Shown here in pieces: positions 28,899 through 29,676 of a stretch of 33,342 nt of DNA. The DNA is taken from NCBI GenBank assembly GCA_945866305.1, contig CAMBGS010000010.1:1-33342 (forward strand), given 5' to 3'. How positions within the stretch are numbered: position 1 is the stretch's first letter; each line of letters starts with the position of its first letter. Position numbers and translations under genes: made by a program. The notes under the pieces were generated by a model that saw only the letters and a list, made by a program, of their open reading frames with translations, was not told the origin of the DNA and searched no databases. Source of the DNA: Bifidobacterium breve (GTDB lineage: Bacteria > Actinomycetota > Actinomycetes > Nanopelagicales > Nanopelagicaceae).

Positions 28899-29676
28899 TT
28901 TATCGAGAGTCACAACCCGAGTCGCATTCATTAGCGGATTGATAATCCTTTTTAACTCTGTTTCAACACCTGCTTTTGCAATGCAGCTTTTTGTCCGCTT
29001 GCCTTCGGGGCAGAATATTTCCATTGATGTAGAACCCAGCGACACAATCGAAAATGTAAAGACCAAGGTTCAGGATACGCAAGGCATTCCTCCTCAGGAG
29101 CAGATATTAACTTTTGCGGGGAGGATCTTGGAAGATGGATTTACGCTGAGTGATTACAATATTCAGAAAGAAGCTTTGGTTCATTTAACTTATGTAGTGC
29201 GCGAATCACCACCCATAGCGAAAGACCCAGTTGTTGTTCGGGCCAAGTGCATCGCCGACCTATTAATCGCGCTACAGGCACTCCAAGCGCCGCCACTTAG
29301 CGCTTTTCAGTGTGCAGAAATCGCTGGCGTTAAGGAATCGAATTTAAAACCAATTACTGGAAAAATTCTTGCTTTAAGCGATCAATCTCGAGCAAGTTTT
29401 ACCAAAGTATGTGCGGTTGTCAGGCAGTTTGTTGTAATCGAAAAGTTTGCTAATCCAAGTACTTCTAGATGGATCTACTCATCTGACCTGGTAGAAATCG
29501 GTCTTTTCACCGCAATGGACCCCAATAGGAGTTCTATTACGGCGGTGATTCGTAAGTTACCGTCGGTGGAGATTGATACATATGAGAATTTGCAGATAGC
29601 GATTGCAAATGAAAAGATTTTTCATCTCAATAGAAAGAATAGACTGACTCAAGCAAGTAAATTACTGAGCAAATAA
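28846..29676 (+). CDS. Exported ubiquitin-like protein with unknown C-terminal domain
   Basis: From ATG 28846 the protein is 276 residues. Residues 1-45 form an export signal: a polar start, the hydrophobic run VAFISGLIILFNSV and the cleavage site STPAFA. The next residue is the Met of a ubiquitin domain (bases 28981-29208) that aligns gap-free with all 76 positions of human ubiquitin; I count about 46 identities, including VEPSDTIENVK and LSDYNIQKE. Lys27, Lys29 and Lys63 are kept. Lys6, 11, 33 and 48 are changed, and the binding patch Leu8/Ile44/Val70 is now Pro/Thr/Thr. Gly75-Gly76 is replaced by Glu-Ser, and about 155 unrecognised residues with three Cys follow. The start is uncertain because no good ribosome-binding site exists. 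Canonical conjugation looks impossible, so a surface or secreted role is inferred. Confidence 0.85.
   Translation: MTAHVKLGQNSNVAIITNLSRVTTRVAFISGLIILFNSVSTPAFAMQLFVRLPSGQNISIDVEPSDTIENVKTKVQDTQGIPPQEQILTFAGRILEDGFTLSDYNIQKEALVHLTYVVRESPPIAKDPVVVRAKCIADLLIALQALQAPPLSAFQCAEIAGVKESNLKPITGKILALSDQSRASFTKVCAVVRQFVVIEKFANPSTSRWIYSSDLVEIGLFTAMDPNRSSITAVIRKLPSVEIDTYENLQIAIANEKIFHLNRKNRLTQASKLLSK

What the first reader, a model, noticed from the sequence alone, without database searches (positions are those of the whole stretch)
28981..29208. Eukaryote-like ubiquitin domain encoded in an actinobacterial core locus
The 76 codons from 28981 align without gaps to ubiquitin. My hand count against the remembered human sequence is about 46 of 76 identical, including long runs (VEPSDTIENVK, LEDG, TLSDYNIQKE). 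Distant bacterial ubiquitin-fold proteins (ThiS, MoaD, UBact, BubA-type) share almost no such sequence. The flanking genes (phoH, transglycosylase-like, fumarase, xseBA) are bacterial and the gene is intronless with codon use like its neighbours. Horizontal transfer from a eukaryote is the simplest explanation. The precedent I know is the secreted ubiquitin of Bacteroides fragilis.
Basis: partly seen in the sequence, partly recalled or inferred. Interest (0 to 1): 0.95.

Follow-up and report, generated by a model that had tools for sequence, protein, structure and literature searches.

The report
Surface-displayed ubiquitin head in bacteria
An actinobacterial gene encodes a domain that is 46 of 76 residues identical to human ubiquitin and lacks ubiquitin's attachment tail; it follows a predicted export signal and is fused to a tail predicted to be helical, so it is likely shown on the cell surface as a binding module, and the same layout with other surface anchors turns up in several bacterial phyla.

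Summary
Residues 46-121 of the ORF starting at 28846 are ubiquitin: 46/76 identical to human, Pfam E 9e-21, predicted fold about 1 Angstrom from 1ubq. The domain follows a predicted signal peptide whose cleavage site (AFA|M) falls at ubiquitin Met1. The conjugation Gly-Gly is gone (YVVRES). A 155-residue tail follows, which in relatives ends other secreted proteins. The gene is a clean one-gene insertion: 19 of 19 relatives fetched have the empty site. It is not a one-off. A genome scan found 249 related stretches, best 80 returned. Of their 82 ubiquitin ORFs, 74 pass the signal-peptide-at-Met1 test and one of these keeps GG. Of 76 ORFs scanned, 26 have autotransporter barrels, 9 IPTL-CTERM, 6 SLH, 5 T9SS tails. 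In the window's lineage the Ile44 surface, the usual contact face, is the least conserved of four published patches and enriched in aromatic residues; in the wider family this is weaker. Most likely an exported, non-conjugating ubiquitin reused as a surface binding head, ultimately from a eukaryote, ligand unknown. BfUbb of Bacteroides fragilis is the closest known case.

The parts
28254..28898 (+). Upstream neighbour: aggregation-promoting-factor / lytic-transglycosylase-like gene (start as listed; not part of the ubiquitin protein)
   Evidence: NCBIfam NF052397 AggPromo_Cterm E 1.5e-31; no Pfam match at E up to 1; next to fumarase in the 19 relatives fetched
28846..29676 (+). Whole ubiquitin-fusion gene, 276 aa if ATG 28846 is the start (start uncertain; overlaps the upstream gene by 53 bases)
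   Evidence: Open frame; full-length homologues at about 49-57% identity, e.g. P0030, P0041
28846..28980 (+). Predicted Sec signal peptide, residues 1-45, ending ..NSVSTPAFA just before ubiquitin Met1
   Evidence: Read from sequence; passes a home-made rule (hydrophobic stretch plus small-x-small motif at the junction; row L128); P42, A43, A45 nearly invariant in 17 aligned sequences; residues 1-43 modelled below pLDDT 50
28981..29208 (+). Ubiquitin domain, residues 46-121, ending YVVRES instead of LRLRGG
29209..29676 (+). C-terminal tail module (residues 122-276; modelled helices between 128 and 275; two invariant cysteines C135 and C156 in 17 aligned sequences), shared with the C-termini of other secreted proteins of the lineage
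   Evidence: No Pfam match at E up to 1; block pLDDT 86-94 from residue 131; invariant columns; same module 1-10 residues from the end of 20 other distinct ORFs
28899..29677 (.). Interval present here and absent (3-66 bases left, measured between alignment ends) in 19 of 19 relatives fetched: one-gene insertion
   Evidence: no repeat longer than 12 bases in 28600-29950, no tRNA in the window
29678..31432 (-).

Best explanation
The gene encodes a ubiquitin domain without the conjugation tail, joined to a predicted signal peptide and a tail predicted to be helical, and the product is likely exported, freed at ubiquitin Met1, held at the cell surface by the tail, and used there as a binding head that would contact a partner other than the eukaryotic ubiquitin machinery. 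Shown by sequence: the ubiquitin domain, the missing Gly-Gly, the tail module shared with other proteins, the one-gene insertion, and the recurrence of the layout with different surface-anchor tails in several phyla. Predicted: Sec export, signal-peptidase cleavage at Ala45|Met46, the helical fold of the tail. Inferred: retention at the surface by the tail, and binding through the rebuilt Ile44 face. Unknown: the partner. Origin (inferred): a eukaryotic or eukaryotic-virus ubiquitin captured behind a bacterial signal peptide, then diverged inside bacteria.
For: Layout: hydrophobic stretch plus small-x-small motif ending at Met1 in 74 of 82 ubiquitin ORFs from the genome scan and in 24 of 37 rows of a second sample found mainly by Pfam profile (13 of the 24 are not in the first sample). 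GG is truly kept in 1 of the 74 (L059; the script flags L024 too, but one search shows an alignment shift) and in 0 of the 24. Tails: of 76 ORFs scanned (74 of the 82, plus two from viral contigs; E up to 0.01), Autotransporter beta-domain in 26, IPTL-CTERM 9, fn3 7, SLH 6, Por_Secre_tail 5. A modelled example (L018) is signal helix, ubiquitin, helix, then a barrel matching EstA 3kvn (E 9e-16) and NalP 1uyn. The window's tail lies 1-10 residues from the end of 20 of 20 other distinct ORFs that carry it; of ten scanned, LRR_5 heads in four, SBBP in one, fn3 in one. Constraint: dN/dS of the ubiquitin part 0.06-0.09 in three pairs that I take as orthologs (L046/L047, L017/L038, L002/L010) and 0.15 in L040/L069. 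Face change: in 21 lineage sequences the published Ile44 patch (8, 44, 68, 70; PMC10453149) is 25% identical to human against 68% for exposed positions, permutation p 0.0055. Changed residues on the extended face are 21% aromatic against 6% elsewhere.
Against: No experiment; export, cleavage and surface location are predictions, and the signal-peptide test is a home-made rule. In the wider family the Ile44 effect holds with my extended patch (p 0.003; 13 new sequences p 0.02) but not with the strict four-residue definition (p 0.11), where the Ile36 patch (64%) is less conserved than the Ile44 patch (76%); the aromatic shift there is small (5% against 2.5%). Related sequences are not independent, so these p-values are optimistic. 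An aromatic-rich face could reflect packing against the tail. The tail's fold and anchoring role are unproven: no Pfam match, and the fold search was filled by ubiquitin hits. 13 of 37 rows fail the signal-peptide test, among them four short ORFs (L159, L160, L162, L165) with no hydrophobic lead. The complete window architecture was found only in the window's own genome among 296 genomes of its order; its other members are database proteins. Many hits are metagenome bins whose labels may be wrong.
Confidence: 0.58

Rival explanations
1. Mimicry or decoy: the exported ubiquitin engages the ubiquitin machinery of eukaryotic grazers or hosts (receptors, E1, deubiquitinases) after uptake.
For: Exported bacterial ubiquitins keep a median of 64 of 72 residues (72 rows), with dN/dS well below 1; BfUbb, also without GG, covalently binds human E1 and inhibits ubiquitination in vitro (PMC3352274 passages).
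Against: In the window protein L8, R42, I44, K48, V70 and most of the C-tail are replaced and in its lineage the Ile44 patch is 25% identical to human; the tails suggest an anchored protein outside the cell. I did not look for a delivery system.
Confidence: 0.15
2. Antibacterial weapon: like BfUbb, the exported ubiquitin antagonises related strains.
For: BfUbb shares the signal peptide ending at residue 1 and the missing terminal glycine and mediates intraspecies antagonism (PMC5705921 passages). Patchy presence: by the coordinates, 8 of 296 genomes of the order (own included) match over the ubiquitin part.
Against: This one is fused to a tail that looks like an anchor; the inserted interval holds this gene alone, with no room for an immunity gene beside it.
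Confidence: 0.13
3. Structural cap: ubiquitin's very stable fold merely protects or helps to export the tail and contacts nothing specific.
For: Buried positions are the best conserved (identity 0.81 in the lineage, 0.95 in the wider set); many different tails are tolerated.
Against: Exposed positions outside the Ile44 face are also conserved (0.72-0.74 in the lineage, 0.85-0.87 in the wider set), more than a bare scaffold seems to need; changed patch residues go to aromatic and hydrophobic more often than elsewhere.
Confidence: 0.12
4. Assembly or binning artefact: eukaryotic DNA joined to a bacterial contig.
For: Atypical codon use; the 19 relatives fetched lack the gene at this site.
Against: Fused in frame to a bacterial tail module; empty-site flanks match on both sides; a protein differing at two residues comes from another sequence record, and full-length homologues are about 49-57% identical.
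Confidence: 0.01

Closest known systems
BfUbb (ubb, BF3883) of Bacteroides fragilis
   Same: Eukaryote-like ubiquitin (63% identical to human), signal sequence with cleavage placing the mature start at ubiquitin residue 1, no terminal Gly-Gly, exported (PMC3352274 and PMC5705921, passages read).
   Different: As I read the passages BfUbb is a single domain with a C-terminal cysteine; the window protein has a 155-residue tail, a rewritten Ile44 face and 46/76 identity.
Eukaryotic ubiquitin / polyubiquitin (PF00240)
   Same: Same family and fold; 46 of 76 residues.
   Different: Predicted to be exported; no Gly-Gly; lysines 6, 11, 33 and 48 replaced (27, 29 and 63 kept); fused to a bacterial tail.
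Engineered ubiquitin variants and Affilins
   Same: Work-like parallel only: ubiquitin used as a binding scaffold with altered residues, able to bind targets outside the ubiquitin system (PMC10453149 passages; listing).
   Different: Man-made; no ancestry claimed, and binding by the natural protein is untested.
Autotransporters (EstA, NalP)
   Same: 26 of 76 relatives scanned match the Autotransporter beta-domain; in the one modelled, ubiquitin lies N-terminal of the barrel.
   Different: The window protein has no such match; its tail is a lineage module predicted to be helical.

Membership tests
Ubiquitin family (PF00240) | Profile match over the curated cut-off and beta-grasp ubiquitin fold | tested here: met
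Conjugable ubiquitin | C-terminal Gly75-Gly76 for adenylation and isopeptide bond | tested here: not met
   Residues 71-76 read YVVRES and the chain continues
Conjugable ubiquitin | E1 and E2 enzymes in the same genome | tested here: inconclusive
   No UQ_con match, but the control rang nowhere; one ThiF match, a family that also rang in 12 of 14 control genomes
Secreted bacterial ubiquitin of BfUbb type | Signal peptide with cleavage site at ubiquitin residue 1 | tested here: met
   ..TPAFA|MQLF by sequence rule, predicted only; BfUbb feature from PMC5705921
Secreted bacterial ubiquitin of BfUbb type | No terminal Gly-Gly | tested here: met
Secreted bacterial ubiquitin of BfUbb type | Single domain, no fused tail (as I read the passages) | tested here: not met
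   155-residue tail
Secreted bacterial ubiquitin of BfUbb type | Inhibits conspecific strains | not testable with these tools
   Needs culture
Bacterial ThiS/MoaD, UBact, Bil/BubA-type ubiquitin-like modifiers | C-terminal Gly-Gly or system-specific tail and partner enzymes nearby (features recalled) | tested here: not met
   No GG; neighbours are an APF-like gene and fumarase

The most novel reading that the evidence does not exclude
Bacteria have turned ubiquitin into a natural, evolvable binding scaffold: an exported domain, mounted on whatever surface anchor the lineage owns, whose freed Ile44 face serves as the variable contact surface, in effect a natural counterpart of engineered ubiquitin variants and a widespread class of cell-surface binding head.
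Probability: 0.3. Interest if true: 0.9.

Novelty: new variant of a known kind. Interest (0 to 1): 0.74.

Why it matters
Ubiquitin is a textbook eukaryotic protein; the two papers on B. fragilis treat a bacterial copy as unique or as one of a few. Here it recurs in several bacterial phyla, cultured isolates included, with one consistent design: predicted signal peptide, ubiquitin from Met1, no Gly-Gly, surface-anchor tail. That points to reuse outside the cell for something other than protein tagging. The lost conjugation tail and, in this lineage, the rewritten Ile44 face make a direct test possible: what does a surface ubiquitin bind?

Tried and rejected
Chimeric contig: rejected. Mobile element or tRNA-site insertion: no supporting repeat or tRNA. 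Canonical tagging inside the cell: rejected because Gly-Gly is absent and the protein is predicted to be exported. Phylogeny to name a donor: 72 columns, 66 of 112 inner branches open, bootstrap not settled; no donor claimed. The window row falls on a long branch outside the 13-member lineage group, which I do not interpret. dN/dS of the window gene itself: not done, no DNA of a diverged ortholog of the same architecture was held. Promoter and terminator scans: no more sites than shuffles.

Literature: acI with ubiquitin (none, or no 'ubiquitin' in the ten papers listed), autotransporter with ubiquitin domain (none), and several phrasings of bacterial ubiquitin. No paper seen describes this architecture; judged from listings, plus passages of PMC3352274, PMC5705921, PMC11354881 and PMC12853789. 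Only open-licence PMC papers are searched, so absence from print is not shown.

Rows dropped before counts: eight of the 82 ORFs (L032, L044, L063, L064, L067, L071, L081, one of L082); from the conservation counts, some viral contigs, rows without an export signal, L112 and gapped rows (lists in the scripts; still holds a few rows without signal, one search does not). The genome scan kept 80 of 249 stretches chosen by patterns covering ubiquitin positions 27-35 and 55-64, which biases conservation there; one search reports the comparison with and without those positions.

Full report

Start codon. In most homologues the first residues (MTTHVKHG.SSNAAIITK) are conserved. In the window this stretch overlaps, in another frame, the end of the upstream gene (..KFKRSNYY). 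My inference from the codons is that those homologues also sit directly behind that gene, and that the conservation may belong to the upstream gene. The true start is therefore uncertain.

Locus. The gene sits between an aggregation-promoting-factor-like gene (NF052397, E 1.5e-31) and fumarase, with phoH upstream. A search of 41 genomes with the APF-like protein matched 32, own included. In the 19 non-self loci fetched, that gene and fumarase are separated by 3-66 bases between alignment ends, against 786 in the window. Flanks are 83-99% identical in the two best matches, G001 and G006. This is a clean one-gene gain, not a chimera. A protein differing from the window's at two residues is held with a longest contig of 2592 bases (P0001); its source is not shown.

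The tail is a shared module. Among 296 genomes of the order, 25 match the family profile; by the coordinates 8 match over the ubiquitin part, the rest only further along, mainly the tail. Across the loci fetched, the tail module lies 1-10 residues from the end of 20 of 20 other distinct ORFs that carry it; in two (L106, L115) it matches in two pieces. Ten of these were scanned against Pfam: LRR_5 in four, SBBP over the cut-off in one, fn3 in one, weak or no match in the other four. Two of them visibly begin with a signal peptide; the others were not tested. The simplest reading is a lineage-specific C-terminal module of secreted or surface proteins. Other genomes of the order carry an export-signal-like lead and ubiquitin on a different tail of 135-139 residues (L094, L095, L096, L098, L099), so the ubiquitin head has been combined with at least two tails within this order. 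L097 has ubiquitin without a visible lead.

The layout is widespread. A scan of genomes of 84,980 species found 249 stretches encoding relatives, of which the best 80 were returned. Cultured or named strains among them include Pseudomonas turukhanskensis, Vibrio, Rhodoferax lacus and Pseudovibrio (Pseudomonadota), Saccharibacillus and Cohnella (Bacillota), Belliella and Carboxylicivirga (Bacteroidota), Rhodopirellula maiorica (Planctomycetota) and Aquiluna (Actinomycetota). Many others are metagenome bins (Verrucomicrobiota and more) whose labels may be wrong; L047, filed as a cyanobacterium, is very close to a Methylophilaceae gene. Of 82 ubiquitin ORFs in those loci, 74 have a hydrophobic stretch and a small-x-small motif ending at Met1; 49 of the 82 have a strict AxA. 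Gly-Gly is truly kept in one of the 74, L059. In the 72 exported rows that the script counts as lacking GG the median identity to human is 64 of 72. Of 76 ORFs scanned against Pfam (74 of those 82 and two from viral contigs; E up to 0.01), 26 have an autotransporter barrel, 9 IPTL-CTERM, 7 fn3, 6 SLH, 5 a T9SS sorting domain, 2 TIG. The modelled autotransporter example has a signal helix, ubiquitin, a helix and a barrel that matches EstA and NalP. Profile searches give 3 of 396 genomes in the window's phylum (own included; one of the three looks eukaryotic), 7 of 197 in the family of Saccharibacillus, 9 of 349 in the family of Rhodoferax lacus and 12 of 239 in the order of an Akkermansiaceae genome, the centre genome included each time. 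In that second sample 24 of 37 distinct rows pass the signal-peptide test and none of the 24 has GG; 13 of the 24 are not in the first sample.

Selection and surface. Pairs that I take as orthologs give dN/dS of 0.087 (L046/L047), 0.063 (L017/L038), 0.148 (L040/L069) and 0.079 (L002/L010, the window's lineage) for the ubiquitin part; 100 pairs of mixed relationship with dS 0.05-1.2 have a median of 0.136. The domain is thus under purifying selection where it could be measured; the window gene itself was not testable. Within that, the Ile44 face is the weak spot in this lineage. In 21 lineage sequences the published four-residue patch is 25% identical to human, against 44% (Ile36 patch), 50% (TEK box), 70% (F4 patch) and 68% for exposed positions (permutation p 0.0055); with an eight-residue patch 31% against 72% (p 0.003). 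In the wider family the eight-residue comparison gives 75% against 85% (p 0.003, 78 sequences) and 64% against 72% in 13 new sequences (p 0.02), but the strict four-residue test does not reach significance (76% against 86%, p 0.11, 71 sequences) and the Ile36 patch is lower still (64%). In the lineage, changed residues on the extended face are aromatic in 30 of 141 cells against 15 of 238 elsewhere, and hydrophobic (proline counted) in 86 of 141 against 93 of 238; in the wider family aromatic 11 of 218 against 11 of 436, hydrophobic 124 of 218 against 113 of 436. Shared ancestry inflates all of these tests. The pattern fits a face rebuilt for another contact better than decay to a bare polar surface, but packing against the tail is not excluded.

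How it most likely works. Exported by Sec (predicted), cut at Ala45|Met46 (predicted), held at the surface by the tail (inferred from its place at the C-terminus of other proteins and from the anchor tails of relatives), with the ubiquitin head presented outwards and using its rebuilt face to bind an unknown partner (inferred). Canonical conjugation is ruled out by the missing Gly-Gly. Mimicry of the eukaryotic ubiquitin system is less likely in this lineage because the canonical patch is gone, though BfUbb binds human E1 without GG (PMC3352274 passages). An antibacterial role like that of BfUbb (PMC5705921 passages) remains open.

Known and new. BfUbb is the closest described case and already shows the signal peptide at residue 1 and the missing glycine. 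The 2017 paper calls B. fragilis one of a few bacteria with such a protein. I saw no paper that describes ubiquitin as a head on autotransporter, SLH, IPTL-CTERM, T9SS or lineage-specific tails (listings and a few passages, open-licence PMC only). I therefore rate it a new variant of a known kind. The Nature Microbiology study of BfUbb (Jiang and colleagues) was seen only as a reference entry.

Noticed in passing
L032: A contig filed under Bifidobacterium breve (a MAG) carries a ubiquitin domain identical to that of G003 (L002), same genus as the window; probably a mis-binned contig.
   Followed up: no
   Followed up: no
L159, L160, L162, L165: Short ubiquitin ORFs from the Rhodoferax family search whose frames begin at or near Met1 without a visible signal peptide, followed by about 29-36 residues; possibly a cytoplasmic form or a missed upstream start.
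   Followed up: no
L090, L092, L093: Viral contigs with ubiquitins close to eukaryotic ones (GG kept in L090 and L093); L090 also has a signal-peptide-like lead.
   Followed up: no
L125, L127 (G705): Ubiquitin domains in open frames of more than 1200 residues in a prokaryote bin; by eye they look like eukaryotic contamination.
   Followed up: partly
L047: A contig filed as an uncultured cyanobacterium carries an autotransporter-type ubiquitin gene very close to one of Methylophilaceae (dS 0.21 over the ubiquitin part); probably mis-binned.
   Followed up: no
window 28254-28898: The upstream APF-like gene has codon use and GC3 unlike the rest of the window (GC3 0.57) although it is conserved in relatives.
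   Followed up: partly
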